Assembly (NCBI GenBank): GCA_033558025.1
Contig: JAUCEF010000018.1
Location: forward strand, 1,488,001-1,552,000
Origin: Phytophthora sp. 'mugwort'
Lineage: Eukaryota > Oomycota > Peronosporomycetes > Peronosporales > Peronosporaceae
Direction of reading: 5' to 3'
DNA: 64,000 nt
Shown in pieces: positions 33,008 through 64,000 of this stretch (position 1 is its first letter; each line of letters opens with the position of its first letter). The notes under the pieces are model-generated. The model was not told the origin of the DNA. It did no database searches and worked only from the letters and a program-made list of their open reading frames with translations. A program made the translations under genes and the position numbers.

Positions 33008-33560
33008 CTAGTATGTTGCCAAGGCGATCTGCTTCCACACCAAATCGGTTCCACAGAAGTAGATAGCGCCTGCATCATACCGAAGTGTTCCAGCCGTGCA
33101 GGCACTACCTCCAGTTGGAGCTGGAGACGCCGTAGTCACAGCACTACCCACGAAAACGACATCGCCACCATCCAACTTCAGCATTCGTGACGAAATCGTG
33201 AGCGCGTCAGTCGATCCGGTTGGCGAGTGCAAGATAGAAGCCTGTGCAGCACTCAACTGCAGCTGTCCGAGGACATTCGCCGCGAGGGCGTTCACAACAC
33301 TTCCAGCAACGTCCACATACAAAACGTCGGTCGAAGCATCTTTCGACACTCGGAAACTATGCGAGTCCACATGAAGGGGCCCACCCGAAACAGTCGTTGA
33401 CGTTCCAGTGATCATGACCTGCGACGCCGATGTGAGCTGAATGGTAGAAGTTGTCGAAGTGAAAGCCACCGCTAAGCTGCTACCAGCTAATACTGTGCTT
33501 GTGACTTTGAGAAGGTCGGTTGCACCAGTCGTAGTTTTCTTCACGTAGAATCCGCCATCA
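33008..33560 (-). other. Unique C-terminal module of the giant protein
   Basis: About 180 non-repetitive residues. First part: strand-rich (FYVKKTTTGATDLLKV, then two similar phrases SFRVSKDASTDVLYVDV and ILHSPTGSTDALTI). The end, ACTAGTLRYDAGAIYFCGTD then LVWKQIALATY, has the pattern C...G-T-[LIV]-R-Y-(x)n-[FY]-C-x-G/T-x-x-W, which I associate with C-terminal segments of phage tail-fibre-like and secreted bacterial proteins. The two Cys probably form a disulphide. It may be a cap or receptor-binding/trimerisation element; that is inference. Confidence 0.6.
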
Positions 33561-36500
33561 TTTACAGCCGATGATCCTGCCCCGATATACGCGTGCACTG
33601 AACCTCCAGTACCCGCTGTGGAATCACCAGCCGTCAAATCGACGGAGCCACCGATGCCACTTGATGACGTTGTCATGCCAGCAGCAATTGTGACAGCTCC
33701 GCCGTCGCCCGTGTTTCCTCCTCCAACCGATAAAGCAATTGCACCTCCTGTGCCACCAGTAGAGCCGCCTGTACTGAGCATGACGCCGCCGCTATTAGCA
33801 TTTGTCGCTGTACCAGAAGATAGCGTGATGGTACCGCTCGCGGATCCCGAGACACCTGTGCCAGTCTTCAGCGATAAGGCACCTCCTGCTGCGCCAGTGC
33901 TCTGTCCACTTGATAAGTTGACGTCGCCTCCGCTCCCCGTGCCTCCAAGGCCACCGTTAATGTTAACAGTGCCACCGGAGACGCTTCCCACTCCTCCGTT
34001 CATTGTGGCGACACCGCCTGCGCCAGCTGACGTCGTTCCTGCCGAAGCAGTCCAGCTCCCACCTATAGCCGCCGCACTCGATCCCACAGACAAAGTCATG
34101 CTGCCAGCAAGCCCATTGGTTGATGCGCCTGTTGATATCGTTAACGCTCCCGTTGGGCCAGATGCTACGCCGGTGCCAAATGACGCGTCTCCACTTCCTA
34201 CAGAGCCACCAATAGCTGACGCGATTTGAATCAACCCGCTAGAGCTGCCTGTGCTAGTTCCGCTAGTAATAGCGATCGTACCACCGCCACCTGGACTTCC
34301 GGAGCCACCAACAAGTGTTATCTTCCCTCCAATTATGCCGCCACCTGCAGTCATCGTTGCGTCACCACCGGTCCCAGCAGTACTTTGACCAGCAAGAAGA
34401 CTCAGTCCTCCGCCAATTCCAGTCGTTCCCGCACCAACAGAAACGGAAATGGCCCCACCAATACCACTTGAAGTAGCGCCCGAAGAAATCGAGATCGCCC
34501 CGCTGTTTCCAGCGGTTGTTGATCCTGTCTCTATCGTGACTGTACCACTTGCACCCGGCACAGACTTTGCAGCGGACGAGATAATGATCTCTCCGCTAGC
34601 AGCTGCAGACAAACTGGGACCACTCGAGAGTGTGATAGACCCGCCAGTGCCAGCACCACTGCTAGTACTAGTCGTGCCAGCTTGGATCGTCACAGCTCCA
34701 CCGCCATCGCCGCCATTGCCGGATAGAATTGACACTTGTCCACCAACTGCTGCGGCCGCAGAGGCTGTTCCAGCAGTCATTGTCAGGGCTCCACCGGCTC
34801 CGACAGAGCCGGAGCCAACTTGAACTAGTATATCACCACCGGTGCCACCAACCGCATTACCTGTGGAAAGTGTGAGGGAACCAGAGCTACCAGCTCCGGT
34901 AGTACCAGATGCTAATTGCACGTTCCCACTTACACCATTAGTACCTCCGTTCGCACTCAGAATATCAACTTTTCCTGAGCTCTTGGCAGTTCCGGTTCCA
35001 CTCACAAGCGAAAGAAGACCTCCTGTTGCAGAAGTCGAATCGCCAGACGACAGAGTGATACTGCCACCATTGCCGATGCCCGCAGTACTATCAGAAGCAG
35101 CACCACCAACTAAAGCGATTCGTCCTCCATTTCCAACTGTACCACCGCCAACTGACATCACGATTTCGCCACCAACACCACCAGTCGATGCACCTGTCGA
35201 TAATGAAATTGAGCCACTCGAGCCTGGAGACGCAGGACCTGACCGTACCGTAATAGAGCCACTGGAGCTTGCTGCCGTCGCTGCATTAGTCAGTGACCCC
35301 GTGGTCAGAAGCAGGTCGCCACTGATACCACTAGTCGCTTTACCACTCGCAAATGACAAAGCACCACCAGTACTACCTCCAGCGCCAGCAGTTAGCTCTA
35401 GAGCACCACCGGTACCTGTGCTACCGCCATTGCCACCAGACACAGACACCTTGCCTCCAACACCAGAGGCATCACTCATCGAGCCGCCCACAATCGATAC
35501 GGGGCCTCCGATTCCACCTACGCCAGTGCTGGCTCCACCTGCCACCGTCACCAGGCCACTCACACCTCCCGTGCTCGCTCCAGATGTAACAGTGACATCT
35601 CCTGATACTCCAGCACTACTAACACCAGAGCCTACAGTAACTGCACCAGATATGCCACTGGTTGCTGAGCGCAGATATACTTCACCGCTACTTGACTGTG
35701 ACGACGAACCACTCGTAATATCAACTAGTCCTCCAGCACTGCTGGCAGCTGTCGCTGCACCAGCAGCAACTTTAACGTCGCCACCAACGCCAACCGTCCC
35801 ACTGCCAACAGAAAGTGTAATTGTGCCACCAGCACCACCAGTCGATGCACCTGTCGATAATGAAATTGAGCCACTCGAGCCTGGAGACGCAGGACCTGAC
35901 CGTACCGTAATAGAACCACTGGCCCCTGCTGCCGTCGCTGCATTAGTCAGTGACCCCGTGGTCAGAAGCAGGTCGCCACTGATACCACTAGTCGCTTTAC
36001 CACTCGCAAATGACAAAGCACCACCAGTACTACCTCCAGCGCCAGCAGTTAGCTCTAGAGCACCACCGGTACCTGTGCTACCGCCATTGCCACCAGACAC
36101 AGACACCTTGCCTCCAACACCAGAGGCATCACTCATCGAGCCGCCCACAATCGATACGGGGCCTCCGATTCCACCTACGCCAGTGCTGGCTCCACCTGCC
36201 ACCGTCACCAGGCCACTCACACCTCCCGTGCTCGCTCCAGATGTAACAGTGACATCTCCTGATACTCCAGCACTACTAACACCAGAGCCTACAGTAACTG
36301 CACCAGATATGCCACTGGTTGCTGAGCGCAGATATACTTCACCGCTACTTGACTGTGACGACGAACCACTCGTAATATCAACTAGTCCTCCAGCACTGCT
36401 GGCAGCTGTCGCTGCACCAGCAGCAACTTTAACGTCGCCACCAACGCCAACCGTCCCACTGCCAACAGAAAGTGTAATTGTGCCACCAGCACCACCAGTC

Positions 36501-39500
36501 GATGCACCTGTCGATAATGAAATTGAGCCACTCGAGCCTGGAGACGCAGGACCTGACCGTACCGTAATAGAACCACTGGCCCCTGCTGCCGTCGCTGCAT
36601 TAGTCAGTGACCCCGTGGTCAGAAGCAGGTCGCCACTGATACCACTAGTCGCTTTACCACTCGCAAATGACAAAGCACCACCAGTACTACCTCCAGCGCC
36701 AGCAGTTAGCTCTAGAGCACCACCGGTACCTGTGCTACCGCCATTGCCACCAGACACAGACACCTTGCCTCCAACACCAGAGGCATCACTCATCGAGCCG
36801 CCCACAATCGATACGGGGCCTCCGATTCCACCTATTCCAGTACTAGCTCCACCTGCCACCGTCACCAGGCCGCTCGCACCTCCCGTGCTCGCTCCAGATG
36901 CAACTGTAACATCTCCTGATTCTCCAACACTGCTGACGCCCGAGTTCACCGTAATCATCCCTGTAAATGAGTTCGATCCTGAATTAATTGCTACTGATCC
37001 ACTAGTAAATGCCGAAGTAGTGCCACCACTCGAGATCTCCACTGAACCGCCAGCAGTCCCCGCGCCAGTCGCAGAGCTCAGACCAGCAGTGATCGACACC
37101 TTACCGCCGCTACCGCTTGATCCGTCGCCCACACTCATGACCACAGAACCGCCGTTACCGCCAGTGCTCGCGCCACTGCCCAGCAAGAGGTTGCCAGACG
37201 ACCCGGCACTCGCGCTGCCGCTGCTGAAGCTCAGCAGGCCAGACCGACCTGCCGTGCCGCCAGAGCCCGTGCTCAGCGATATCGAACCGCTAGAGCTCGC
37301 CACACCGCGGCCGCTCAACACACTCACGGAGCCACCTGTACCACTTGTTAGAGACGACAAAGCCGTCGAGTCTCCCGCCGTTAAGGAGATAGCGCCACCC
37401 GACATGGCATCGCCAGCGCCCACCGACAGAGAGATCGACCCGCCGTGACCGCCCGTTGACACACCCGTATTCACAGCCACGGAACCGCTGTCGCCCACAC
37501 GGCTTACGCCGCTCGTCAGGCGAAGACTGCCACTCACGCCGCTCGCACTCGCAGCATCCGGCGTCGTCAGCGAGATGTCGCCGCTCGACGTCGTCACACC
37601 CGCGCCGCTCGCCAAAGTGATCGAACCGCCACTCGTCACGCCGCTCCCACCGCTCAGCGAGATCGACCCGCCGACAGTGCCGCTCGTGTGGGTATCGCCA
37701 GACCGCAGCGAGATGGATCCGCCATTGCCGCTGTTGCCAGTTCCCACATTCAGCACCACAGAGCCACCGTTGCCGCCAGTACTGTCGCCAGTGCTCACTG
37801 TCACGTCACCTACCGTGCCCGCCGTCGATGAACCTGTCGTCAGGCTGATCAACCCAGACGAACCGCCCGAGCCACTATTTCCCGAGCCACCATCCGGAGT
37901 GCGCACAAGCACATTGCCGCTCGTGAATGTGCTGCTCGCGCCACTAGATACCTCGACGTTGCCGCCCACACCACTGTCAACACTGCCAACAGTGCCGCCA
38001 CTCACACCACCAGCAGTCAGCAACACCTTGCCGCCCGCTCCCATGTTGCCACTGCCCACGGACAGCTCGATGTTACCTCCACTGCCACCATTCGACAAAC
38101 CCGTCGTAAGACGAACAGACCCGCTCGACAACTGAGACGCAGCGCCGCTCGCCAAGGACAACGACCCGCTCGTGCCAGACGAAGCACTCCACAGCGACAC
38201 GTCTCCACTCGTCGTGCTGGTGCCAGTACCGGCTCCACTGCCCACACTGATGGACCCACCTGTCAACGCACCTTGGCCGCCGATCAGCTCGATCAAGCCG
38301 CCAGCAGACCCCGTCGCAATCGCAGAACTCAAACCAGCAGTGATCGACACCTTACCGCCGCTACCGCTTGATCCGTCGCCCACACTCATGACCACAGAAC
38401 CGCCGTTACCGCCAATGCTCGCGCCACTGCCCAGCAAGAGGTTGCCAGACGACCCTGCACTCGCGCTGCCGCTGCTGAAGCTCAGCAGGCCAGACCGACC
38501 CGCCGTGCCGCCAGAGCCCGTGCTCAGCGAAATCGAACCGCTAGAGCTCGCCACACCGCGGCCGCTCAACACACTCACGGAGCCACCTGTACCACTTGTT
38601 AGAGACGACAAAGCCGTCGAGTCCCCCGCCGTTAGGGAGATAGCGCCGCCCGACATGGCATCGCCAGCGCCCACAGACAGAGAGATCGACCCACCGTGAC
38701 CGCCCGTTGACACACCCGTATTCACAGCCACGGAACCGCTGTCGCCCACACGGCTCACGCCGCTCGTCAGACGAAGACTGCCACTCACGCCGCTCCCACT
38801 CGCAGCGTCCGGCGTCGTCAGCGAGATGTCGCCGCTCGATGTCGTCACACCCGCGCCGCTCGCCAAAGTGATCGAACCGCCACTCGTCACGCCGCTCCCA
38901 CCGCTCAGCGAGATCGACCCGCCGACAGTGCCGCTCGTGTGGGTATCGCCAGACCGCAGCGAGATGGATCCACCATTGCCGCTGTTGCCAGTTCCCACAT
39001 TCAGCACCACAGAGCCACCGTTGCCGCCAGTACTGTCGCCAGTGCTCACTGTCACGTCACCTACCGTGCCCGCCGTCGATGAACCTGTCGTCAGGCTGAT
39101 CAACCCAGACGAACCGCCCGAGCCACTATTCCCCGAGCCACCATCTGGAGTGCGCACAAGCACATTGCCGCTCGTGAATGTGCTGCTCGCGCCACTAGAT
39201 ACCTCGACGTTGCCGCCCACACCACTGTCAACACTGCCAACAGTGCCGCCACTCGCACCACCAGCAGTCAGCAACACCTTGCCGCCCGCTCCCATGTTGC
39301 CACTGCCCACGGACAGCTCGATGTTACCTCCACTGCCACCATTCGACAAACCCGTCGTAAGACGAACAGACCCGCTCGACAACTGAGACGCAGCGCCGCT
39401 CGCCAAGGACAACGACCCGCTCGTGCCAGACGAAGCACTCCACAGCGACACGTCTCCACTCGTCGTGCTGGTGCCAGTACCGGCTCCACTGCCCACACTG

Positions 39501-57500: not shown

Positions 57501-60500
57501 CCGCTGTCGCCCACACGGCTCACGCCGCTCGTCAGACGAAGACTGCCACTCACGCCGCTCCCACTCGCAGCGTCCGGCGTCGTCAGCGAGATGTCGCCGC
57601 TCGACGTCGTCACACCCGCGCCGCTCTGCAACGAGATCGACCCGCCGCTCGTCACGCCGCTCCCACCGCTCAGCGAGATCGACCCGCCGACAGTGCCGCT
57701 CGTGTGGGTATCGCCAGACCGCAGCGAGATGGATCCGCCATTGCCGCTGTTGCCAGTTCCCACATTCAGCACCACAGAGCCACCGTTGCCGCCAGTACTG
57801 TCGCCAGTGCTCAATGTCACGTCACCTACCGTGCCCGCCGTCGATGAACCTGTCGTCAGGCTGATCAACCCAGACGAACCGCCCGAGCCACTATTTCCCG
57901 AGCCACCATTTGGAGTGCGCACAAGCACATTGCCGCTCGTGAATGTGCTGCTCGCGCCACTAGATACCTCGACGTTGCCGCCCACACCACTGTCAACACT
58001 GCCAACAGTGCCGCCACTCGCACCACCAGCAGTCAGCAACACCTTGCCGCCGGCTCCAATGTCGCCACTGCCCACGGACAGCTCGATGTTGCCTCCACTA
58101 CCGCCATTCGACAAGCCTGTCGTCAGATGAACAGACCCGCTCGACGACTGAGACGCAGCGCCGCTCGCCAACGACAACGACCCGCTCATGCTAGACGACG
58201 CACTCCACAGCGACACGTCCCCACTCGTCGTGCTGGTGCCAGTACCAGCTCCACTGCTCACACTGATGGACCCACCTGTCAACGCACCTTGGCCGCCGAT
58301 CAGCTCGATCAAGCCGCCAGCAGACCCCGTCGCAATCGCAGAACTCAAACCAGCAGTGATCGACACCTTACCGCCGCTACCGCTTGATCCGTCGCCCACA
58401 CTCATGACCACAGAACCGCCGTTACCGCCAGTGCTCGCGCCACTGCCCAGCAAGAGGTTGCCAGACGACCCTGCACTCGCGCTGCCGCTGCTGAAGCTCA
58501 GCAGGCCAGACCGACCTGCCGTGCCGCCAGAGCCCGTGCTCAGCGATATCGAACCGCTAGAGCTCGCCACACCGCGGCCGCTCAACACACTCACGGAGCC
58601 ACCTGTACCACTTGTTAGAGACGACAAAGCCGTCGAGTCTCCCGCCGTTAAGGAGATAGCGCCACCCGACATGGCATCGCCAGCGCCCACCGACAGAGAG
58701 ATCGACCCACCGTGACCGCCCGTTGACACACCCGTATTCACAGCCACGGAACCGCTGTCGCCCACACGGCTCACGCCGCTCGTCAGACGAAGACTGCCAC
58801 TCACGCCGCTCCCACTCGCAGCGTCCGGCGTCGTCAGCGAGATGTCGCCGCTCGACGTCGTCACACCCGCGCCGCTCGCCAAAGTGATCGAACCGCCACT
58901 CGTCACGCCGCTCCCACCGCTCAGCGAGATCGACCCGCCGACAGTGCCGCTCGTGTGGGTATCGCCAGACCGCAGCGAGATGGATCCGCCATTGCCGCTG
59001 TTGCCAGTTCCCACATTCAGCACCACAGAGCCACCGTTGCCGCCAGTACTGTCGCCAGTGCTCACTGTCACGTCACCTACCGTGCCCGCCGTCGATGAAC
59101 CTGTCGTCAGGCTGATCAACCCAGACGAACCGCTAGAGCCACTATTCCCCGAGCCACCATCCGGAGTGCGCACAAGCACATTGCCGCTCGTGAATGTGCT
59201 GCTCGCGCCACTAGATACCTCGACGTTGCCGCCCACACCACTGTCAACACTGCCAACAGTGCCGCCACTCGCACCACCAGCAGTCAGCAACACCTTGCCG
59301 CCCGCTCCCATGTTGCCACTGCCCACGGACAGCTCGATGTTACCTCCTCTGCCGCCATTCGACAAGCCTGTCGTCAGATGAACAGATCCGCTCGACGACT
59401 GAGACGCAACGCCGCTCGCCAACGACAACGACCCGCTCGTGCCAGACGAAGCACTCCACAGCGACACGTCTCCACTCGTCGTGCTGGTGCCAGTACCGGC
59501 TCCACTGCCCACACTGATGGACCCGCCGGTCAACGCACCTTGGCCGCCGATCAGCTCGATCATGCCGCCAGCAGACCCCGTCGCAATCGCAGAACTCAAA
59601 CCAGCAGTGATCGACACCTTACCGCCGCTACCGCTTGATCCGTCGCCCACACTCATGACCACAGAACCGCCGTTACCGCCAGTGCTCGCGCCACTGCCCA
59701 GCAAGAGGTTGCCAGACGACCCTGCACTCGCGCTGCCGCTGCTGAAGCTCAGCAGGCCAGACCGACCTGACGTGCCGCCAGAGCCCGTGCTCAGCGAAAT
59801 CGAACCGCTAGAGCTCGCCACACCGCGGCCGCTCAACACACTCACGGAGCCACCTGTACCACTTGTTAGAGACGACAAAGCCGTCGAGTCTCCCGCCGTT
59901 AAGGAGATAGCGCCACCCGACATGGCATCGCCAGCGCCCACCGACAGAGAGATCGACCCACCGTGACCGCCCGTTGACATACCCGTATTCACAGCCACGG
60001 AACCGCTGTCGCCCACACGGCTCACGCCGCTCGTCAGACGAAGAGTGCCACTCACGCCGCTCCCACTCGCAGCGTCCGGCGTCGTCAGCGAGATGTCGCC
60101 GCTCGACGTCGTCACACCCGCGCCGCTCACCAAAGTGATCGAACCGCCACTCGTCACGCCGCTCCCACCGCTCAGCGAGATCGACCCGCCGACAGTGCCG
60201 CTCGTGTGGGTATCGCCAGACCGCAGCGAGACGGATCCGCCAGCGCCGCTGTTGCCAGTTCCCACATTCAGCACCACAGAGCCACCGTTGCCGCCAGTAC
60301 TGTCGCCAGTGCTCACTGTCACGTCACCTACCGTGCCCGCCGTCGATGAACCTGTCGTCAGGCTGATCAACCCAGACGAACCGCTAGAGCCACTATTCCC
60401 CGAGCCACCATTTGGAGTGCGCACAAGCACATTGCCGCTCGTGAATGTGCTGCTCGCGCCACTAGATACCTCGACGTTGCCGCCCACACCACTGTCAACA

Positions 60501-63500
60501 GTGCCGACAGTGCCGCCACTCGCACCACCAGCAGTCAGCAACACCTTGCCGCCGGCTCCAATGTCGCCACTGCCCACGGACAGCTCGATGTTGCCTCCAC
60601 TACCGCCATTCGACAAGCCTGTCGTCAGATGAACAGACCCGCTCGACGACTGAGACGCAACGCCGCTCGCCAACGACAACGACCCGCTCGTGCTAGACGA
60701 CGCACTCCACAGCGACACGTCCCCACTCGTCGTGCTGGTGCCAGTGCCAGCTCCACTGCCCACACTGATGGACCCACCTGTCAACGCACCTTGGCCGCCG
60801 ATCAGCTCGATCAAGCCGCCAGCAGACCCCGTCGCAATCGCAGAACTCAAACCAGCAGTGATCGACACCTTACCGCCGCTACCGCTTGATCCGTCGCCCA
60901 CTCTCATGACCACAGAACCGCCGTTACCGTCAGTGCTCGCGCCACTGCCCAGCAAGAGGTTGCCAGACGACCCTGCACTCGCGCTGCCGCTGCTGAAGCT
61001 CAGCAGGCCAGACCGACCTGCCGTGCCGCCAGAGCCCGTGCTCAGCGATATCGAACCGCTAGAGCTCGCCACACCGCGGCCGCTCAACACACTCACGGAG
61101 CCACCTGTACCACTTGTTAGAGATGACAAAGCCGTCGAGTCTCCCGCCGTTAAGGAGATAGCGCCACCCGACATGGCATCGCCAGCGCCCACCGACAGAG
61201 AGATCGACCCGCCGTGACCGCCCGTTGACACACCCGTATTCACAGCCACGGAACCGCTGTCGCCCACACGGCTCACGCCGCTTGTCAGACGAAGACTGCC
61301 ACTCACGCCGCTCCCACTCGCAGCGTCCGGCGTCATCAGCGAGATGTCGCCGCTCGACGTCGTCACACCCGCGCCGCTCGCCAAAGTGATCGAACCGCCA
61401 CTCGTCACGCCGCTCCCACCGCTCAGCGAGATCGACCCGCCGACAGTGCCGCTCGTGTGGGTATCGCCAGACCGCAGCGAGACGGATCCGCCAGCGCCGC
61501 TGTTGCCAGTTCCCACATTCAGCACCACAGAGCCACCGTTGCCGCCAGTACTGTCGCCAGTGCTCACTGTCACGTCACCTACCGTGCCCGCCGTCGATGA
61601 ACCTGTCGTCAGGCTGATCAACCCAGACGAACCGCTAGAGCCACTATTCCCCGAGCCACCATCCGGAGTGCGCACAAGCACATTGCCGCTCGTGAATGTG
61701 CTGCTCGCGCCGCTTGATATCTCAACGCTACCACCCACACCACTCTCAGCAGTGCCAATTGTGCCGCCACTCGCACCACCAGCAGTCAGCAACACCTTGC
61801 CGCCGGCTCCAATGTCGCCACTGCCCACGGACAGCTCGATGTTGCCTCCACTACCGCCATTCGACAAACCCGTCGTCAGACGAACAGACCCGCTCGACGA
61901 CTGAGACGCAGCGCCACTCGCCACCGACAACGACCCGCTCGTGCTAGACGACGCACTCCACAGCGACACGTCTCCACTCGTCGTGCTGGTGCCAGTACCG
62001 GCTCCACTGCCCACACTGATGGACCCACCTGTCAACGCACCTTGGCCGCCGATCAGCTCGATCAAGCCGCCAGCAGACCCCGTCGCAATCGCAGAACTCA
62101 AACCAGCAGTGATCGACACCTTACCGCCGCTACCGCTTGATCCGTCGCCCACACTCATGACCACAGAACCGCCGTTACCGCCAGTGCTCGCGCCACTGCC
62201 CAGCAAGAGGTTGCCAGACGACCCTGCACTCGCGCTGCCGCTGCTGAAGCTCAGCAGGCCAGACCGACCTGCCGTGCCGCCAGAGCCCGTGCTCAGCGAT
62301 ATCGAACCGCTAGAGCTCGCCACACCGCGGCCGCTCAACACACTCACGGAGCCACCTGTACCACTTGTTAGAGACGACAAAGCCGTCGAGTCTCCCGCCG
62401 TTAAGGAGATAGCGCCACCCGACATGGCATCGCCAGCGCCCACAGACAGAGAGATCGACCCACCGTGACCGCCCGTTGACACACCCGTATTCACAGCCAC
62501 GGAACCGCTGTCGCCCACACGGCTCACGCCGCTCGTCAGACGAAGACTGCCACTCACGCCGCTCCCACTCGCAGCGTCCGGCGTCGTCAGCGAGATGTCG
62601 CCGCTCGACGTCGTCACACCCGCGCCGCTCGCCAAAGTGATCGAACCGCCACTCGTCACGCCGCTCCCACCGCTCAGCGAGATCGACCCGCCGACAGTGC
62701 CGCTCGTGTGCGTGTCACCAGACCGCAGCGAGATGGATCCGCCAGCGCCGCTGTTGCCAGTTCCCACATTCAGCACCACAGAGCCACCGTTGCCGCCAGT
62801 ACTGTCGCCAGTGCTCACTGTCACGTCACCTACCGTGCCCGCCGTCGATGAACCTGTCGTCAGGCTGATCAACCCAGACGAACCGCTAGAGCCACTATTC
62901 CCCGAGCCACCATCCGGAGTGCGCACAAGCACATTGCCGCTCGTGAATGTGCTGCTCGCGCCACTAGATACCTCGACGTTGCCGCCCACACCACTGTCAA
63001 CAGTGCCAATTGTGCCGCCACTCGCACCACCAGCAGTCAGCAACACCTTGCCGCCGGCTCCAATGTCGCCACTGCCCACGGACAGCTCGATGTTGCCTCC
63101 ACTACCGCCATTCGACAAACCCGTCGTCAGACGAACAGACCCGCTCGACGACTGAGACGCAGCGCCACTCGCCACCGACAACGACCCGCTCGTGCTAGAC
63201 GACGCACTCCACAGCGACACGTCCCCACTCGTCGTGCTGGTGCCAGTACCAGCTCCACTGCCCACACTGATGGACCCGCCGGTCAACGCACCTTGGCCGC
63301 CGATCAGCTCGATCAAGCCGCCAGCAGACCCCGTCGCAATCGCAGAACTCAAACCAGCAGTGATCGACACCTTACCGCCGCTACCGCTTGATCCGTCGCC
63401 CACACTCATGACCACAGAACCGCCGTTACCGCCAATGCTCGCGCCACTGCCCAGCAAGAGGTTGCCAGACGACCCGGCACTCGCGCTGCCGCTGCTGAAG

Positions 63501-64000
63501 CTCAGCAGGCCAGACCGACCTGCCGTGCCGCCAGAGCCTGTGCTCAGCGATATCGAACCGCTAGAGCTCGCCACACCGCGGCCGCTCAACACACTCACGG
63601 AGCCACCTGTACCACTTGTTAGAGACGACAAAGCCGTCGAGTCTCCCGCCGTTAAGGAGATAGCGCCACCCGACATGGCATCGCCAGCGCCCACCGACAG
63701 AGAGATCGACCCACCGTGACCGCCCGTTGACACACCCGTATTCACAGCCACGGAACCGCTGTCGCCCACACGGCTCACGCCGCTCGTCAGACGAAGACTG
63801 CCACTCACGCCGCTCCCACTCGCAGCGTCCGGCGTCGTCAGCGAGATGTCGCCGCTCGACGTCGTCACACCCGCGCCGCTCTGCAACGAGATCGACCCGC
63901 CGCTCGTCACGCCGCTCCCACCGCTCAGCGAGATCGACCCGCCGACAGTGCCGCTCGTGTGCGTGTCACCAGACCGCAGCGAGACGGATCCGCCAGCGCC
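33008..64000 (-). CDS. Giant Gly/Ser-rich repeat protein (partial, N-terminus beyond window)
   Basis: Stop at 33008-33010; the frame is open without any stop or visible intron to the right edge, at least 10,330 residues (about 0.9 MDa). Composition is dominated by Gly, Ser, Thr, Val and Ala, with Cys essentially only in the C-terminal module. Everything upstream of that module is built from about 15-residue segments, consensus G-[SDN]-[VIL]-x-[LV]-x-[ST]-G followed by a Ser/Gly/Thr turn, as expected of a beta-solenoid or stacked beta-strand fibre. From C- to N-terminus: unique module (33008-33560), degenerate repeats (33560-35170), a 219-residue tandem repeat and a 417-residue tandem repeat. 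An adhesin, cyst-coat or extracellular fibre role is inferred from architecture; oomycetes are known to store giant repetitive glycoproteins in peripheral vesicles (Lpv), but this sequence is not claimed to be one. No start or signal peptide is visible. Confidence 0.85.
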   Translation of the reverse strand, partial: GAGGSVSLRSGDTHTSGTVGGSISLSGGSGVTSGGSISLQSGAGVTTSSGDISLTTPDAASGSGVSGSLRLTSGVSRVGDSGSVAVNTGVSTGGHGGSISLSVGAGDAMSGGAISLTAGDSTALSSLTSGTGGSVSVLSGRGVASSSGSISLSTGSGGTAGRSGLLSFSSGSASAGSSGNLLLGSGASIGGNGGSVVMSVGDGSSGSGGKVSITAGLSSAIATGSAGGLIELIGGQGALTGGSISVGSGAGTGTSTTSGDVSLWSASSSTSGSLSVASGAASQSSSGSVRLTTGLSNGGSGGNIELSVGSGDIGAGGKVLLTAGGASGGTIGTVDSGVGGNVEVSSGASSTFTSGNVLVRTPDGGSGNSGSSGSSGLISLTTGSSTAGTVGDVTVSTGDSTGGNGGSVVLNVGTGNSGAGGSISLRSGDTHTSGTVGGSISLSGGSGVTSGGSITLASGAGVTTSSGDISLTTPDAASGSGVSGSLRLTSGVSRVGDSGSVAVNTGVSTGGHGGSISLSVGAGDAMSGGAISLTAGDSTALSSLTSGTGGSVSVLSGRGVASSSGSISLSTGSGGTAGRSGLLSFSSGSASAGSSGNLLLGSGASTGGNGGSVVMSVGDGSSGSGGKVSITAGLSSAIATGSAGGLIELIGGQGALTGGSISVGSGAGTGTSTTSGDVSLWSASSSTSGSLSVASGAASQSSSGSVRLTTGLSNGGSGGNIELSVGSGDIGAGGKVLLTAGGASGGTIGTAESGVGGSVEISSGASSTFTSGNVLVRTPDGGSGNSGSSGSSGLISLTTGSSTAGTVGDVTVSTGDSTGGNGGSVVLNVGTGNSGAGGSVSLRSGDTHTSGTVGGSISLSGGSGVTSGGSITLASGAGVTTSSGDISLMTPDAASGSGVSGSLRLTSGVSRVGDSGSVAVNTGVSTGGHGGSISLSVGAGDAMSGGAISLTAGDSTALSSLTSGTGGSVSVLSGRGVASSSGSISLSTGSGGTAGRSGLLSFSSGSASAGSSGNLLLGSGASTDGNGGSVVMRVGDGSSGSGGKVSITAGLSSAIATGSAGGLIELIGGQGALTGGSISVGSGAGTGTSTTSGDVSLWSASSSTSGSLSLASGVASQSSSGSVHLTTGLSNGGSGGNIELSVGSGDIGAGGKVLLTAGGASGGTVGTVDSGVGGNVEVSSGASSTFTSGNVLVRTPNGGSGNSGSSGSSGLISLTTGSSTAGTVGDVTVSTGDSTGGNGGSVVLNVGTGNSGAGGSVSLRSGDTHTSGTVGGSISLSGGSGVTSGGSITLVSGAGVTTSSGDISLTTPDAASGSGVSGTLRLTSGVSRVGDSGSVAVNTGMSTGGHGGSISLSVGAGDAMSGGAISLTAGDSTALSSLTSGTGGSVSVLSGRGVASSSGSISLSTGSGGTSGRSGLLSFSSGSASAGSSGNLLLGSGASTGGNGGSVVMSVGDGSSGSGGKVSITAGLSSAIATGSAGGMIELIGGQGALTGGSISVGSGAGTGTSTTSGDVSLWSASSGTSGSLSLASGVASQSSSGSVHLTTGLSNGGRGGNIELSVGSGNMGAGGKVLLTAGGASGGTVGSVDSGVGGNVEVSSGASSTFTSGNVLVRTPDGGSGNSGSSGSSGLISLTTGSSTAGTVGDVTVSTGDSTGGNGGSVVLNVGTGNSGNGGSISLRSGDTHTSGTVGGSISLSGGSGVTSGGSITLASGAGVTTSSGDISLTTPDAASGSGVSGSLRLTSGVSRVGDSGSVAVNTGVSTGGHGGSISLSVGAGDAMSGGAISLTAGDSTALSSLTSGTGGSVSVLSGRGVASSSGSISLSTGSGGTAGRSGLLSFSSGSASAGSSGNLLLGSGASTGGNGGSVVMSVGDGSSGSGGKVSITAGLSSAIATGSAGGLIELIGGQGALTGGSISVSSGAGTGTSTTSGDVSLWSASSSMSGSLSLASGAASQSSSGSVHLTTGLSNGGSGGNIELSVGSGDIGAGGKVLLTAGGASGGTVGSVDSGVGGNVEVSSGASSTFTSGNVLVRTPNGGSGNSGSGGSSGLISLTTGSSTAGTVGDVTLSTGDSTGGNGGSVVLNVGTGNSGNGGSISLRSGDTHTSGTVGGSISLSGGSGVTSGGSISLQSGAGVTTSSGDISLTTPDAASGSGVSGSLRLTSGVSRVGDSGSVAVNTGVSTGGHGGSISLSVGAGDAMSGGAISLTAGDSTALSSLTSGTGGSVSVLSGRGVASSSGSISLSTGSGGTAGRSGLLSFSSGSASAGSSGNLLLGSGASTGGNGGSVVMSVGDGSSGSGGKVSITAGLSSATSTGSVGGLIELIGGQGALTGGSISVGSGAGTGTSTTSGDVSLWSASSSTSGSLSVASGAASQSSSGSVHLTTGLSNGGSGGNIELSVGSGDIGAGGKVLLTAGGASGGTVGSVDSGVGGNVEVSSGASSTFTSGNVLVRTPNGGSGNSGSGGSSGLISLTTGSSTAGTVGDVTLSTGDSTGGNGGSVVLNVGTGNSGNGGSISLRSGDTHTSGTVGGSISLSGGSGVTSGGSISLQSGAGVTTSSGDISLTTPDAASGSGVSGSLRLTSGVSRVGDSGSVAVNTGVSTGGHGGSISLSVGAGDAMSGGAISLTAGDSTALSSLTSGTGGSVSVLSGRGVASSSGSISLSTGSGGTAGRSGLLSFSSGSASAGSSGNLLLGSGASTGGNGGSVVMSVGDGSSGSGGKVSITAGLSSAIATGSAGGLIELIGGQGALTGGSISVGSGAGTGTSTTSGDVSLWSASSGTSGSLSLASGVASQSSSGSVHLTTGLSNGGRGGNIELSVGSGNMGAGGKVLLTAGGASGGTVGSVDSGVGGNVEVSSGASSTFTSGNVLVRTPDGGSGNSGSSGSSGLISLTTGSSTAGTVGDVTVSTGDSTGGNGGSVVLNVGTGNSGAGGSISLRSGDTHTSGTVGGSISLSGGSGVTSGGSITLASGAGVTTSSGDISLTTPDAASGSGVSGSLRLTSGVSRVGDSGSVAVNTGVSTGGHGGSISLSVGAGDAMSGGAISLTAGDSTALSSLTSGTGGSVSVLSGRGVASSSGSISLSTGSGGTAGRSGLLSFSSGSASAGSSGNLLLGSGASIGGNGGSVVMSVGDGSSGSGGKVSITAGLSSAIATGSAGGLIELIGGQGALTGGSISVGSGAGTGTSTTSGDVSLWSASSGTSGSLSLASGVASQSSSGSVHLTTGLSNGGSGGNIELSVGSGDIGAGGKVLLTAGGASGGTIGTAESGVGGNVEVSSGASSTFTSGNVLVRTPDGGSGNSGSSGSSGLISLTTGSSTAGTVGDVTVSTGDSTGGNGGSVVLNVGTGNSGNGGSISLRSGDTHTSGTVGGSISLSGGSGVTSGGSITLASGAGVTTSSGDISLTTPDAASGSGVSGSLRLTSGVSRVGDSGSVAVNTGVSTGGHGGSISLSVGAGDAMSGGAISLTAGDSTALSSLTSGTGGSVSVLSGRGVASSSGSISLSTGSGGTSGRSGLLSFSSGSASAGSSGNLLLGSSASTGGNGGSVVMSVGDGSSGSGGKVSITAGLSSATSTGSAGGLIELIGGQGALTGGSISVGSGAGTGTSTTSGDVSLWSASSGTSGSLSLASGVASQSSSGSVYLTTGLSNGGRGGNIELSVGSGDMGAGGKVLLTAGGASGGTVGSVDSGVGGNVEVSSGASSTFTSGNVLVRTPNGGSGNSGSGGSSGLISLTTGSSTAGTVGDVTVSTGDSTGGNGGSVVLNVGTGNSGNGGSISLRSGDTHTSGTVGGSISLSGGSGVTSGGSITLASGAGVTTSSGDISLTTPDAASGSGVSGSLRLTSGVSRVGDSGSVAVNTGVSTGGHGGSISLSVGAGDAMSGGAISLTAGDSTALSSLTSGTGGSVSVLSGRGVASSSGSISLSTGSGGTAGRSGLLSFSSGSASAGSSGNLLLGSGASTGGNGGSVVMSVGDGSSGSGGKVSITAGLSSAIATGSAGGLIELIGGQGALTGGSISVGSGAGTGTSTTSGDVSLWSASSGTSGSLSLASGVASQSSSGSVYLTTGLSNGGRGGNIELSVGSGDMGAGGKVLLTAGGASGGTVGTAESGVGGNVEVSSGASSTFTSGNVLVRTPNGGSGNSGSSGSSGLISLTTGSSTAGTVGDVTVSTGDSTGGNGGSVVLNVGTGNSGNGGSISLRSGDTHTSGTVGGSISLSGGSGVTSGGSITLASGAGVTTSSGDISLTTPDAASASGVSGSLRLTSGVSRVGDSGSVAVNTGMSTGGHGGSISLSVGAGDAMSGGAISLTAGDSTALSSLTSGTGGSVSVLSGRGVASSSGSISLSTGSGGTAGRSGLLSFSSGSASAGSSGNLLLGSGASIGGNGGSVVMSVGDGSSGSGGKVSITAGLSSAIATGSAGGLIELIGGQGALTGGSISVGSGAGTGTSTTSGDVSLWSASSGTSGSLSLASGVASQSSSGSVHLTTGLSNGGRGGNIELSVGSGNMGAGGKVLLTAGGASGGTVGSVDSGVGGNVEVSSGASSTFTSGNVLVRTPDGGSGNSGSGGSSGLISLTTGSSTAGTVGDVTVSTGDSTGGNGGSVVLNVGTGNSGNGGSISLRSGDTHTSGTVGGSISLSGGSGVTSGGSITLASGAGVTTSSGDISLMTPDAASGSGVSGSLRLTSGVSRVGDSGSVAVNTGVSTGGHGGSISLSVGAGDAMSGGAISLTAGDSTALSSLTSGTGGSVSVLSGRGVASSSGSISLSTGSGGTAGRSGLLSFSSGSASAGSSGNLLLGSGASTGGNGGSVVMSVGDGSSGSGGKVSITAGLSSAIATGSAGGLIELIGGQGALTGGSISVGSGAGTGTSTTSGDVSLWSASSGTSGSLSLASGVASQSSSGSVHLTTGLSNGGRGGNIELSVGSGNMGAGGKVLLTAGGASGGTVGSVDSGVGGNVEVSSGASSTFTSGNVLVRTPDGGSGNSGSGGSSGLISLTTGSSTAGTVGDVTVSTGDSTGGNGGSVVLNVGTGNSGNGGSISLRSGDTHTSGTVGGSISLSGGSGVTSGGSITLASGAGVTTSSGDISLTTPDAASASGVSGSLRLTSGVSRVGDSGSVAVNTGVSTGGHGGSISLSVGAGDAMSGGAISLTAGDSTALSSLTSGTGGSVSVLSGRGVASSSGSISLSTGSGGTAGRSGLLSFSSGSASAGSSGNLLLGSGASIGGNGGSVVMSVGDGSSGSGGKVSITAGLSSAIATGSAGGLIELIGGQGALTGGSISVGSGAGTGTSTTSGDVSLWSASSGTSGSLSLASGVASQSSSGSVHLTTGLSNGGRGGNIELSVGSGNMGAGGKVLLTAGGASGGTVGSVDSGVGGNVEVSSGASSTFTSGNVLVRTPDGGSGNSGSGGSSGLISLTTGSSTAGTVGDVTVSTGDSTGGNGGSVVLNVGTGNSGAGGSISLRSGDTHTSGTVGGSISLSGGSGVTSGGSITLASGAGVTTSSGDISLTTPDAASASGVSGSLRLTSGVSRVGDSGSVAVNTGMSTGGHGGSISLSVGAGDAMSGGAISLTAGDSTALSSLTSGTGGSVSVLSGRGVASSSGSISLSTGSGGTAGRSGLLSFSSGSASAGSSGNLLLGSGASTGGNGGSVVMSVGDGSSGSGGKVSITAGLSSAIATGSVGGLIELIGGQGALTGGSISVGSGAGTGTSTTSGDVSLWSASSGTSGSLSLASGVASQSSSGSVHLTTGLSNGGRGGNIELSVGSGNMGAGGKVLLTAGGASDGTVGSVDSGVGGNVEVSSGASSTFTSGNVLVRTPNGGSGNSGSGGSSGLISLTTGSSTAGTVGDVTVSTGDSTGGNGGSVVLNVGTGNSGNGGSISLRSGDTHTSGTVGGSISLSGGSGVTSGGSITLASGAGVTTSSGDISLMTPDAASGSGVSGSLRLTSGVSRVGDSGSVAVNTGVSTGGHGGSISLSVGAGDAMSGGAISLTAGDSTALSSLTSGTGGSVSVLSGRGVASSSGSISLSTGSGGTAGRSGLLSFSSGSASAGSSGNLLLGSGASTGGNGGSVVMSVGDGSSGSGGKVSITAGLSSAIATGSAGGLIELIGGQGALTGGSISVGSGAGTGTSTTSGDVSLWSASSGTSGSLSLASGVASQSSSGSVHLTTGLSNGGRGGNIELSVGSGNMGAGGKVLLTAGGASGGTVGSVDSGVGGNVEVSSGASSTFTSGNVLVRTPDGGSGNSGSGGSSGLISLTTGSSTAGTVGDVTVSTGDSTGGNGGSVVLNVGTGNSGNGGSISLRSGDTHTSGTVGGSISLSGGSGVTSGGSITLASGAGVTTSSGDISLMTPDAASGSGVSGSLRLTSGVSRVGDSGSVAVNTGVSTGGHGGSISLSVGAGDAMSGGAISLTAGDSTALSSLTSGTGGSVSVLSGRGVASSSGSISLSTGSGGTAGRSGLLSFSSGSASAGSSGNLLLGSGASIGGNGGSVVMSVGDGSSGSGGKVSITAGLSSAIATGSAGGLIELIGGQGALTGGSISVGSGAGTGTSTTSGDVSLWSASSSMSGSLSLASGAASQSSSGSVHLTTGLSNGGSGGNIELSVGSGDIGAGGKVLLTAGGTSGGTIGTAESGVGGNVEVSSGASSTFTSGNVLVRTPDGGSGNSGSSGSSGLISLTTGSSTAGTVGDVTVSTGDSTGGNGGSVVLNVGTGNSGNGGSISLRSGDTHTSGTVGGSISLSGGSGVTSGGSITLASGAGVTTSSGDISLMTPDAASGSGVSGSLRLTSGVSRVGDSGSVAVNTGVSTGGHGGSISLSVGAGDAMSGGAISLTAGDSTALSSLTSGTGGSVSVLSGRGVASSSGSISLSTGSGGMAGRSGLLSFSSGSASAGSSGNLLLGSGASTGGNGGSVVMSVGDGSSGSGGKVSITAGLSSAIATGSAGGLIELIGGQGALTGGSISVGSGAGTGTSTTSGDVSLWSASSGTSGSLSLASGVASQSSSGSVHLTTGLSNGGRGGNIELSVGSGDMGAGGKVLLTAGGASGGTVGSVDSGVGGNVEVSSGASSTFTSGNVLVRTPDGGSGNSGSGGSSGLISLTTGSSTAGTVGDVTVSTGDSTGGNGGSVVLNVGTGNSGNGGSISLRSGDTHTSGTVGGSISLSGGSGVTSGGSITLASGAGVTTSSGDISLTTPDAASGSGVSGSLRLTSGVSRVGDSGSVAVNTGVSTGGHGGSISLSVGAGDAMSGGAISLTAGDSTALSSLTSGTGGSVSVLSGRGVASSSGSISLSTGSGGMAGRSGLLSFSSGSASAGSSGNLLLGSGASTGGNGGSVVMSVGDGSSGSGGKVSITAGLSSAIATGSAGGLIELIGGQGALTGGSISVGSGAGTGTSTTSGDVSLWSASSGTSGSLSLASGVASQSSSGSVHLTTGLSNGGRGGNIELSVGSGDMGAGGKVLLTAGGASGGTVGSVDSGVGGNVEVSSGASSTFTSGNVLVRTPDGGSGNSGSGGSSGLISLTTGSSTAGTVGDVTVSTGDSTGGNGGSVVLNVGTGNSGNGGSISLRSGDTHTSGTVGGSISLSGGSGVTSGGSITLASGAGVTTSSGDISLTTPDAASGSGVSGSLRLTSGVSRVGDSGSVAVNTGVSTGGHGGSISLSVGAGDAMSGGAISLTAGDSTALSSLTSGTGGSVSVLSGRGVASSSGSISLSTGSGGMAGRSGLLSFSSGSASAGSSGNLLLGSGASTGGNGGSVVMSVGDGSSGSGGKVSITAGLSSAIATGSAGGLIELIGGQGALTGGSISVGSGAGTGTSTTSGDVSLWSASSGTSGSLSLASGVASQSSSGSVHLTTGLSNGGRGGNIELSVGSGNMGAGGKVLLTAGGVSGGTVGSVDSGVGGNVEVSSGASSTFTSGNVLVRTPDGGSGNSGSGGSSGLISLTTGSSTAGTVGDVTVSTGDSTGGNGGSVVLNVGTGNSGNGGSISLRSGDTHTSGTVGGSISLSGGSGVTSGGSITLASGAGVTTSSGDISLTTPDAASASGVSGSLRLTSGVSRVGDSGSVAVNTGMSTGGHGGSISLSVGAGDAMSGGAISLTAGDSTALSSLTSGTGGSVSVLSGRGVASSSGSISLSTGSGGTAGRSGLLSFSSGSASAGSSGNLLLGSGASIGGNGGSVVMSVGDGSSGSGGKVSITAGLSSAIATGSAGGLIELIGGQGALTGGSISVGSGAGTGTSTTSGDVSLWSASSGTSGSLSLASGAASQLSSGSVRLTTGLSNGGSGGNIELSVGSGNMGAGGKVLLTAGGASGGTVGSVDSGVGGNVEVSSGASSTFTSGNVLVRTPDGGSGNSGSGGSSGLISLTTGSSTAGTVGDVTVSTGDSTGGNGGSVVLNVGTGNSGNGGSISLRSGDTHTSGTVGGSISLSGGSGVTSGGSITLASGAGVTTSSGDISLTTPDAASGSGVSGSLRLTSGVSRVGDSGSVAVNTGVSTGGHGGSISLSVGAGDAMSGGAISLTAGDSTALSSLTSGTGGSVSVLSGRGVASSSGSISLSTGSGGTAGRSGLLSFSSGSASAGSSGNLLLGSGASIGGNGGSVVMSVGDGSSGSGGKVSITAGLSSAIATGSAGGLIELIGGQGALTGGSISVGSGAGTGTSTTSGDVSLWSASSGTSGSLSLASGAASQLSSGSVRLTTGLSNGGSGGNIELSVGSGNMGAGGKVLLTAGGVSGGTVGSVDSGVGGNVEVSSGASSTFTSGNVLVRTPDGGSGNSGSGGSSGLISLTTGSSTAGTVGDVTVSTGDSTGGNGGSVVLNVGTGNSGNGGSISLRSGDTHTSGTVGGSISLSGGSGVTSGGSITLASGAGVTTSSGDISLTTPDAASASGVSGSLRLTSGVSRVGDSGSVAVNTGVSTGGHGGSISLSVGAGDAMSGGAISLTAGDSTALSSLTSGTGGSVSVLSGRGVASSSGSISLSTGSGGTAGRSGLLSFSSGSASAGSSGNLLLGSGASTGGNGGSVVMSVGDGSSGSGGKVSITAGLSSATGAGTAGGSVEISSGGTTSAFTSGSVAINSGSNSFTGMITVNSGVSSVGESGDVTVASGASTGGASGLVTVAGGASTGIGGIGGPVSIVGGSMSDASGVGGKVSVSGGNGGSTGTGGALELTAGAGGSTGGALSFASGKATSGISGDLLLTTGSLTNAATAAGASGSITVRSGPASPGSSGSISLSTGASTGGAGGTITLSVGSGTVGVGGDVKVAAGAATAASSAGGLVDITSGSSSQSSSGEVYLRSATSGISGAVTVGSGVSSAGVSGDVTVTSGASTGGVSGLVTVAGGASTGVGGIGGPVSIVGGSMSDASGVGGKVSVSGGNGGSTGTGGALELTAGAGGSTGGALSFASGKATSGISGDLLLTTGSLTNAATAAGASGSITVRSGPASPGSSGSISLSTGASTGGAGGTITLSVGSGTVGVGGDVKVAAGAATAASSAGGLVDITSGSSSQSSSGEVYLRSATSGISGAVTVGSGVSSAGVSGDVTVTSGASTGGVSGLVTVAGGASTGVGGIGGPVSIVGGSMSDASGVGGKVSVSGGNGGSTGTGGALELTAGAGGSTGGALSFASGKATSGISGDLLLTTGSLTNAATAASSSGSITVRSGPASPGSSGSISLSTGASTGGVGGEIVMSVGGGTVGNGGRIALVGGAASDSTAGIGNGGSITLSSGDSTSATGGLLSLVSGTGTAKSSGKVDILSANGGTNGVSGNVQLASGTTGAGSSGSLTLSTGNAVGGTGGDILVQVGSGSVGAGGALTMTAGTASAAAAVGGQVSILSGNGGDGGGAVTIQAGTTSTSSGAGTGGSITLSSGPSLSAAASGEIIISSAAKSVPGASGTVTIETGSTTAGNSGAISISSGATSSGIGGAISVSVGAGTTGIGGGLSLLAGQSTAGTGGDATMTAGGGIIGGKITLVGGSGSPGGGGTIAITSGTSTGSSSGLIQIASAIGGSVGSGDASFGTGVASGPTGALTISTGASTNGLAGSMTLSVGSSAAAIGGSWTASAGTTSAGAGGVATMNGGVGSVSGGTVNINGGLGGTGSGGDVNLSSGQSTGAAGGALSLKTGTGVSGSASGTITLSSGTATNANSGGVMLSTGGSTGGTGGAIALSVGGGNTGDGGAVTIAAGMTTSSSGIGGSVDLTAGDSTAGTGGSVHAYIGAGSSAVNDGGFYVKKTTTGATDLLKVTSTVLAGSSLAVAFTSTTSTIQLTSASQVMITGTSTTVSGGPLHVDSHSFRVSKDASTDVLYVDVAGSVVNALAANVLGQLQLSAAQASILHSPTGSTDALTISSRMLKLDGGDVVFVGSAVTTASPAPTGGSACTAGTLRYDAGAIYFCGTDLVWKQIALATY
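33560..35170 (-). repeat. Degenerate short Gly/Ser repeats
   Basis: Same 15-residue strand-turn segments as the arrays but strongly diverged, with a recurring phrase of the type STGGxGGxIxLSVGxG-GxGG about every 100 residues (for example near 33720, 34430, 34820 and 35150). This looks like the ancestral, no longer homogenised end of the array. Confidence 0.75.
35170..36915 (-). repeat. Tandem 657-bp (219-residue) repeat, about 2.7 copies
   Basis: Blocks recur exactly 657 bp apart (for example 35353 and 36010; 35725 and 36382) with almost no differences. The unit contains GGPVSIVGGSMSDASG, SFASGKATSGISGDLLLTTG and SITVRSGPASPGSSGSISL. It is a different higher-order unit from the 1251-bp array beside it but uses the same 15-residue segment. 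Confidence 0.92.
37080..64000 (-). repeat. Tandem 1251-bp (417-residue) repeat, about 21.5 copies, continuing past window
   Basis: The same landmark recurs at 37575 and every 1251 bp up to 63846 (22 occurrences) with no insertion or deletion in about 27 kb. Copies differ by scattered substitutions only. Each unit contains about 26 segments, starting for example GGSISLSVGAGDAMSGGAIS and including DVSLWSAS (the only Trp) and VLVRTPDGGSG. The landmark STGGxGG-(x)5-SVGxG-(x)3-GxGG occurs four times per unit, so 417 is about 4 x 104. Confidence 0.97.

What the first reader, a model, noticed from the sequence alone, without database searches (positions are those of the whole stretch)
33008..64000. 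Reading frame of more than 10,300 codons for a giant beta-strand repeat protein
A single uninterrupted minus-strand frame covers half the window and is still open at the edge. It is almost wholly Gly/Ser/Thr with regular hydrophobic strand residues and no Cys outside the C-terminus. Absence of stops over 31 kb of repetitive DNA, with substitutions present but no indels, implies selection on the protein. I know of no described oomycete family with this exact repeat; the closest concept is the giant peripheral-vesicle glycoproteins of Phytophthora, which have a different repeat length in what I recall.
Basis: partly seen in the sequence, partly recalled or inferred. Interest (0 to 1): 0.9.

Follow-up and report, generated by a model that had tools for sequence, protein, structure and literature searches.

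The report
Giant self-cutting fibre protein gene
A gene in what is probably a water mould appears to encode a secreted fibre protein of about 43,000 amino acids, built from some 2,700 stacked turns with two built-in self-cutting domains, which makes it a candidate backbone or ruler for a micrometre-long cell-surface hair.

Summary
The minus-strand frame ending at 33008-33010 stays open for 41,472 codons, far past the window edge. With three small GT-AG introns near its 5' end it reads as 4 exons, 43,157 aa, 3.83 MDa, starting with a signal-peptide-like stretch and a Cys-rich PSI-like region. The body is 2,724 coils of ~15 residues. Only two inserts over 44 residues interrupt them; both are Peptidase_S74/ICA domains that keep the Pro|Ser site and Ser-Lys dyad of MYRF self-cleavage. 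Repeat units show protein-level constraint (omega 0.22-0.41). A second giant frame (17,510 codons) lies on another contig. Relatives occur in Lagenidium giganteum and metagenomes. Best reading: a secreted giant beta-solenoid fibre, assembled and cut into three lengths by its ICA domains. About 1.3 um of solenoid is close to the 1.5 um of Phytophthora tubular mastigonemes, so a hair backbone or ruler is a bold, testable possibility. Transcription, fold and localisation are unshown; the species is unidentified.

The parts
33008..33010 (-). Stop codon (TAG) of the giant gene
33011..33559 (-). Non-coil C-terminal cap (residues about 42,975-43,157) with two Cys; conserved in Lagenidium giganteum P0001, metagenome P0002 and the C7 paralogue
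   Evidence: coil search, coordinates, alignments
33560..64000 (-). Window part of coil block C (about 15 residues per coil); the block continues to about 102,823 in window numbering
34862..36832 (-). 219-aa repeats, three anchor copies 219 residues apart (the last may be partial)
37712..63982 (-). 21 whole 417-aa (1,251-nt) units of a 40-unit array that continues upstream to 87,751 in window numbering
33008..64000 (-). Last exon, window part. Outside the window (same numbering): ATG 162731, introns 162226-162130, 158121-158044 and 157461-157387; ICA1 serine at 152908, ICA2 serine at 103156

Best explanation
One host gene encodes a secreted, 43,157-residue extracellular fibre protein. SHOWN by sequence: a signal-peptide-like start, a Cys-rich PSI-like head, 2,724 coils of about 15 residues (core G-x-h-x-h-x-x-G) in three blocks (182, 1,089 and 1,453 coils) separated by two ICA/S74 domains, and a conserved non-coil C-terminal cap. 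INFERRED: each coil is one rung of a beta-solenoid; the ICA domains bring three chains together during or after folding in the secretory pathway; each ICA domain then cuts just before its own serine (Pro|Ser, Ser-Lys dyad), giving pieces of about 3,190, 16,580 and 23,380 residues. The result would be rigid fibres of defined length (about 0.09, 0.52 and 0.70 um, 1.3 um in all, at 0.48 nm per coil; three times that if the chains are fully intertwined) on the cell surface. Whole-unit tandem duplication changes fibre length without breaking the frame. The most likely use is a surface hair, coat or adhesive fibre.
For: Open frame of 41,472 codons; spliced prediction of 43,157 aa. Intron 1 is supported by relative P0003, whose alignment runs across the junction at 32% over 200 aa; at introns 2 and 3 the spliced coil rhythm has no spacing above 21 residues. 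Coil-core positions over 6 bits: 2,540 in the protein, 56 in one composition shuffle; motif 2,334 against 168 in one shuffle. Both ICA domains exceed the Pfam cut-off, 52.6 and 50.3 bits against 22; ICA1's best PDB match is a MYRF ICA domain, 7dc3, E 3.1e-9. The P-S bond and the K at +5 match MYRF P586|S587 and K592, where S587A or K592A abolished cleavage (PMC8326128, passages). The same ICA-to-coil junction occurs in metagenome protein P0006, 39% over 236 aa. Codon-level constraint in all four arrays scored. A paralogue has 17,510 open codons, a signal-like stretch upstream, coils and a related cap. All 112 listed matches of P0003 in the genome fall in these two genes (64 of 145 candidates scored), as do all 4 of P0005 (50 of 64 scored).
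Against: No transcript, protein or microscopy data. Both AlphaFold runs were poor: mean pLDDT 40.7 for 560 C-terminal residues and 46.6 for 154 residues around ICA1, from 3 and 4 aligned sequences, so neither the solenoid nor the ICA fold is confirmed; no fold search was run. ICA domains of phage fibres sit at the fibre end, not inside. PSI is just under its threshold, 23.0 against 23.1 bits. Signal peptides were judged by eye. Only about 6,100 of 43,157 residues were scanned with Pfam.
Confidence: 0.6

Rival explanations
1. It is specifically the backbone or length ruler of a flagellar hair (tubular mastigoneme).
For: About 1.3 um of coil at 0.48 nm per coil against 1.5 um for P. parasitica type-1 tubular mastigonemes (PMC9068220, passages); in Chlamydomonas the repetitive MST3 sets maximum hair length (PMC11015965, passages).
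Against: The length estimate has a threefold uncertainty; predicted cleavage would cut the ruler; no localisation; the known shaft component MAS1 is unrelated in size (64 kDa, PMC12223298, passages); presence in species without zoospores was not testable here.
Confidence: 0.18
2. It is a fibre, but the ICA domains only assemble the trimer or are relics; the chain is not cut.
For: P0006 keeps the domain but has lost the dyad; the C7 paralogue has no S74 match.
Against: Both domains of this gene keep P-S and K at +5.
Confidence: 0.2
3. It is a bulk storage or vesicle glycoprotein of the Lpv kind, not a fibre.
For: Large repetitive proteins (>400 kDa) are stored in zoospore peripheral vesicles of Phytophthora (PMC3869178, passages).
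Against: Coil regularity and ICA domains suggest a folded fibre; N-glycosylation sequons are fewer than in shuffles (98 against a mean of 299.5 over 20 shuffles; repeats are not independent).
Confidence: 0.12
4. A recent capture of a phage- or virus-type fibre gene.
For: Similar coil repeats occur in phage-like proteins (P0005 relatives on 6 IMG/VR loci); the genome holds 97 S74 matches, several in virus-fibre-like frames.
Against: Introns and a signal-like exon; among solved structures ICA1 is closest to MYRF, not to phage ICA; relatives with the same head or ICA-coil junction; the C-terminal cap found no viral relative.
Confidence: 0.08
5. Artefact or neutral expansion: the arrays are mis-assembled or non-functional satellite-like DNA that happens to be open.
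For: Units are at least 95.5% identical in DNA, so copy number is uncertain; antisense frames are long too.
Against: Omega 0.22-0.41 and no broken frame in 60 units scored; the largely unique first ~3,700 residues and the cap have relatives in other organisms; a single open frame of 124 kb.
Confidence: 0.07

Closest known systems
ICA / Peptidase_S74 domain of MYRF and phage endosialidases
   Same: Profile match over cut-off, P|S site, Ser-Lys dyad
   Different: Two domains embedded inside one chain with hundreds to thousands of coils before and after; no transcription-factor part seen
Chlamydomonas mastigoneme protein MST3 (PMC11015965, passages)
   Same: Very long repetitive extracellular protein on the micrometre scale
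   Different: MST3 is polyproline with a PKD-like membrane part; this protein is 0.56% Pro and coil-built; likeness of function is only a hypothesis
Phage-like proteins with ~15-residue G-x-h-x-h repeats (P0005, P0007-P0012; phage-like judged by eye, P0005 relatives on IMG/VR contigs)
   Same: Same kind of coil spacing
   Different: 450-1,002 aa; no related head or cap noticed on reading them; no Pfam, PHROGs or NCBIfam family covered the repeat in the pieces scanned
Phytophthora large-peripheral-vesicle proteins (Lpv)
   Same: Very large repetitive secretory proteins
   Different: Reported >400 kDa against 3.83 MDa here; Lpv repeat length (about 178 aa) is recalled; sequences not compared
Other giant proteins: titin (~35,000 aa), PKZILLA-1 (45,212 aa), a bacterial 85,804-aa protein (sizes recalled, from no call)
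   Same: Size class
   Different: Unrelated folds and functions (recalled)

Membership tests
ICA / Peptidase_S74 (PF13884) | Profile match over the curated cut-off | tested here: met
   52.6 and 50.3 bits against 22;
ICA / Peptidase_S74 (PF13884) | Catalytic Ser with Lys at +5, cut before the Ser | tested here: met
   P-S-D-R-R-I-K in both copies against MYRF P586|S587, K592
ICA / Peptidase_S74 (PF13884) | ICA three-dimensional fold | tested here: inconclusive
   AlphaFold mean pLDDT 46.6 from 4 sequences
ICA / Peptidase_S74 (PF13884) | Trimerisation and actual self-cleavage | not testable with these tools
   needs protein
MYRF transcription factors | DNA-binding domain before and membrane helix after the ICA domain | tested here: not met
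   Between residues 215 and 42,959 the only non-coil inserts over 44 aa are the two ICA regions; Pfam on the 251-aa head and 1,200-aa tail gave only PSI and nothing. Membrane helices were not predicted separately
Beta-solenoid repeat proteins | Regular coil with alternating hydrophobic residues | tested here: met
   2,724 coils; 2,464 of 2,723 spacings 13-18 residues, mean 15.1
Beta-solenoid repeat proteins | Solenoid three-dimensional fold | tested here: inconclusive
   mean pLDDT 40.7; strands recur about every 15 residues
Known oomycete mastigoneme protein MAS1 | EGF-like domains, about 64 kDa | tested here: not met
   3.83 MDa; no EGF match in the five pieces of this protein scanned; features from PMC12223298 passages
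MST3-type mastigoneme ruler | Polyproline repeats and PKD-like membrane domain | tested here: not met
   Pro 0.56%; no insert of that size between coils apart from the ICA regions
Large-peripheral-vesicle proteins (Lpv) | Sequence similarity to Lpv repeats | not tested
   no Lpv sequence at hand
PSI (plexin repeat, PF01437) | Profile match over cut-off | tested here: inconclusive
   23.0 bits against 23.1, two stretches, E 1e-4

The most novel reading that the evidence does not exclude
The gene encodes the molecular ruler and backbone of an oomycete surface hair, most boldly the tubular mastigoneme: hair length is written into the gene as the number of 15-residue coils, changes by whole-unit tandem duplication, and segments are made by two MYRF-like ICA domains that trimerise the chain and cut it at fixed points. 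It would be a stramenopile counterpart of Chlamydomonas MST3, built from an unrelated fold.
Probability: 0.18. Interest if true: 0.96.

Novelty: new variant of a known kind. Interest (0 to 1): 0.86.

Why it matters
At 43,157 predicted residues this would be among the largest proteins predicted in any eukaryote (comparison sizes recalled), built almost wholly from one coil. It joins two things that I did not find together in print in the searches named below: a micrometre-scale coil array and ICA self-cleavage domains placed inside the chain. It offers a concrete candidate for what sets the length of micrometre-long surface structures in oomycetes, and it predicts exact cut sites and fragment sizes that can be tested.

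Tried and rejected
Structure: two AlphaFold jobs, both too poor to search with; fold search was not used. Protein searches are limited by length: the 5,000-aa query found nothing at E <= 1e-5 among 1,083 scored candidates, the 1,200-aa query one protein among 7,987 scored, the alignment query 11 among 7,983 scored; relatives of other lengths would be missed. C-terminal cap in viral contigs: 7 pattern matches, none a relative. PHROGs and NCBIfam: no family for 5 proteins each. Attempt to build a gap-free repeat alignment for a third look at the fold failed because coil lengths vary. Species: the rRNA family search got no answer five times and a 5.8S pattern recalled from memory had no match. 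The 86-Mb size recalls P. sojae (86 Mb in 70 contigs, PMC7082073 passages), but this genome has 154 contigs and I do not claim that identity. Synteny: the gene that follows the relative in L. giganteum was not found in the 264 kb read. 'No stops, therefore selection' was replaced by the codon test. Literature: searches of open PubMed Central papers showed no description of such a protein in an oomycete; listings were capped (8-20 papers shown of up to 6,131; one search found none). Papers were seen as passages only; one search gave no passage; the rest are search listings. Passages of PMC5771568 on Saprolegnia cyst hairs, and of PMC6601393 and PMC4316629, gave nothing decisive.

Full report
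Check of the observation. The window's minus-strand frame ends at a TAG at 33008-33010 and is open to the window edge, 10,330 codons. The window is G000:C18:1488001-1552000 of an 86.26-Mb genome in 154 contigs. I fetched the adjoining 200 kb. In window numbering the frame stays open to 157426 (41,472 codons), meets one stop at 157427, and is open again to 162178. That stop lies in a 75-nt GTAAGC...ACAG segment whose length is a multiple of three. A second such segment (78 nt) lies at 158121-158044, and a 97-nt intron separates exon 1. The spliced prediction has 4 exons, 129,474 nt of CDS including the stop, 43,157 aa and 3.83 MDa.

The splices are predictions, without transcripts. Intron 1 is supported by metagenome protein P0003, which aligns from the Cys-rich end of exon 1 straight into exon 2 (32% over 200 aa). 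After removal of introns 2 and 3 the coil rhythm has no spacing above 21 residues at the junctions.

Is it more than chance? Long frames are cheap in this DNA: the opposite strand has a ladder of open frames of up to 899 codons. I therefore tested codons. Over 60 repeat units (37 of 417 aa, 7 of 514, 13 of 900, 3 of 901), distinct variants against the unit consensus were 111 synonymous and 83 non-synonymous, with no stops. The expectation from the synonymous rate, split by transition and transversion, was about 233 non-synonymous and 3.6 stops (binomial P about 9e-13). Omega is 0.37, 0.41, 0.35 and 0.22. Variants in arrays can spread between units, so these counts are not fully independent. 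A step count gives 40 units in the 417 array; three of them are not among the 37 scored because of the anchor residues or the 85% similarity threshold. Spacings are one period or a multiple of it, so no frame-breaking indel was seen in the units scored. Copy number is uncertain, since units are at least 95.5% identical in DNA.

Anatomy. Residues 1-31 look like a signal peptide (judged by eye). Residues 50-162 hold 16 Cys, with a PSI match just under threshold, 23.0 bits against 23.1. A dynamic-programming coil search finds 2,724 coils from residue 215 to 42,959; 2,464 of 2,723 spacings are 13-18 residues, mean 15.1. Only two spacings exceed 44 residues, 207 at residue 3,096 and 194 at 19,693. 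Both regions are Peptidase_S74/ICA domains (5.6e-14 and 3e-13). The coil core G-x-h-x-h-x-x-G occurs 2,334 times against 168 in one shuffle. In order: a largely unique first ~3,700 residues that include ICA1, then 901- and 900-aa units, ICA2, 514-aa units, 417-aa units, 219-aa units, and a cap of about 180 residues. N-glycosylation sequons number 98 against a mean of 299.5 over 20 shuffles, a count that repeats make non-independent.

The ICA domains. In a search of solved-structure sequences ICA1 hits a MYRF ICA domain (7dc3) at E 3.1e-9; two further chains were listed, at 0.14 and 0.84, which is chance level. In MYRF the cut is between P586 and S587, and S587A or K592A abolishes it (PMC8326128, passages). 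Both domains here read P-S-D-R-R-I-K. The inferred cuts would give pieces of about 3,190, 16,580 and 23,380 residues. Against this, relative P0006 keeps the ICA region and the following coil junction (39% over 236 aa) but has lost the Ser and Lys: there the domain can at most assemble.

Relatives. The same genome has one paralogue on C7: stop at 2342634, 17,510 open codons, a signal-like stretch upstream and a related cap; I did not model its splicing and read only its two ends. All 112 listed matches of P0003 in the genome lie in these two genes (64 of 145 candidates scored). No S74 match at E <= 1e-3 lies in the C7 gene. Outside, the C-terminal query found one protein, Lagenidium giganteum N0F65_003511 (46% over 69% of 500 aa). 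Its database model looks like the giant's tail fused to a neighbouring importin/transportin-like gene, on Pfam matches that are weak and under their cut-offs. The alignment query found 11 proteins: P0002 is a tail at 70% identity, P0003 a head, P0006 an ICA-coil piece. P0005 and P0007-P0012 look phage-like by eye and share the coil spacing; P0005 relatives occur on 6 IMG/VR loci. So the coil is not unique to oomycetes, while the head, ICA and cap link this gene to other, probably eukaryotic, giants whose sources are unnamed.

How it probably works. The inferred scheme is secretion, trimerisation at the ICA domains, self-cleavage before each ICA serine, and a rigid fibre. At 0.48 nm per coil (general knowledge of beta-solenoids) the three blocks are 0.087, 0.523 and 0.697 um, 1.31 um together; a fully intertwined trimer would be three times as long. 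Phytophthora type-1 tubular mastigonemes are 1.5 um long (PMC9068220, passages). In Chlamydomonas the repetitive MST3, one copy per hair, sets the maximum length (PMC11015965, passages). This makes a hair ruler a fair hypothesis, and no more: the length carries a threefold uncertainty, cleavage would cut the ruler, and there are no expression data. Cyst coat, adhesive hair and vesicle store remain open.

What is missing. Both AlphaFold models are poor. Signal peptides were not tested by a predictor. Only about 6,100 of 43,157 residues were scanned with Pfam. The literature searched is open PubMed Central only, with capped listings, and papers were seen as passages, not in full.

Verdict. It is a constrained, giant, probably secreted repeat protein with two embedded self-cleavage domains. 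I rate it a new variant of a known kind (ICA-assembled beta fibre), of high interest because of its size, its architecture and the sharp predictions it allows.

Noticed in passing
G000:C7:2342634-2395166 (outside the window; L030, L032): A second giant frame of the same family: 17,510 open codons, a signal-like stretch upstream, no S74 match, and a tail with many short V-x-F-S-type repeats before the related cap.
   Followed up: partly
G000:C12, about 2.34-2.42 Mb (outside the window): S74 matches spaced 26,415-26,420 bases (2339303, 2365723, 2392138, 2418558), which suggests tandem copies of a ~26.4-kb element with a virus-fibre-like gene.
   Followed up: no
whole genome, 97 places; L033-L044: 97 S74 matches in one genome. 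Several frames look like viral fibre genes (L036-L044), whereas L033 (C18:70030) looks like a host gene with S74, short repeats and a coiled coil.
   Followed up: partly
window:10619-12283 (+) and 17505-19199 (-): Two bZIP genes in opposite orientation with Pfam matches at the same residues (261-322) and nearly equal scores (41.5, 41.6 bits), which suggests a recent inverted duplicate.
   Followed up: no
window:34824-37445 (+) and, beyond the window, 103182-152534 (+): Long open frames on the opposite strand inside the arrays (up to 899 codons), best explained by the low-stop codon make-up of the sense frame.
   Followed up: partly
P0001 (Lagenidium giganteum N0F65_003511): The database gene model looks like the giant's tail fused to an importin/transportin-like gene; other genes of this family may be mis-annotated or split in the same way.
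   Followed up: no
full predicted protein (residues 1-43157): N-glycosylation sequons are about three times rarer than in shuffles (98 against 299.5), which is unexplained and may reflect coil constraints.
   Followed up: no
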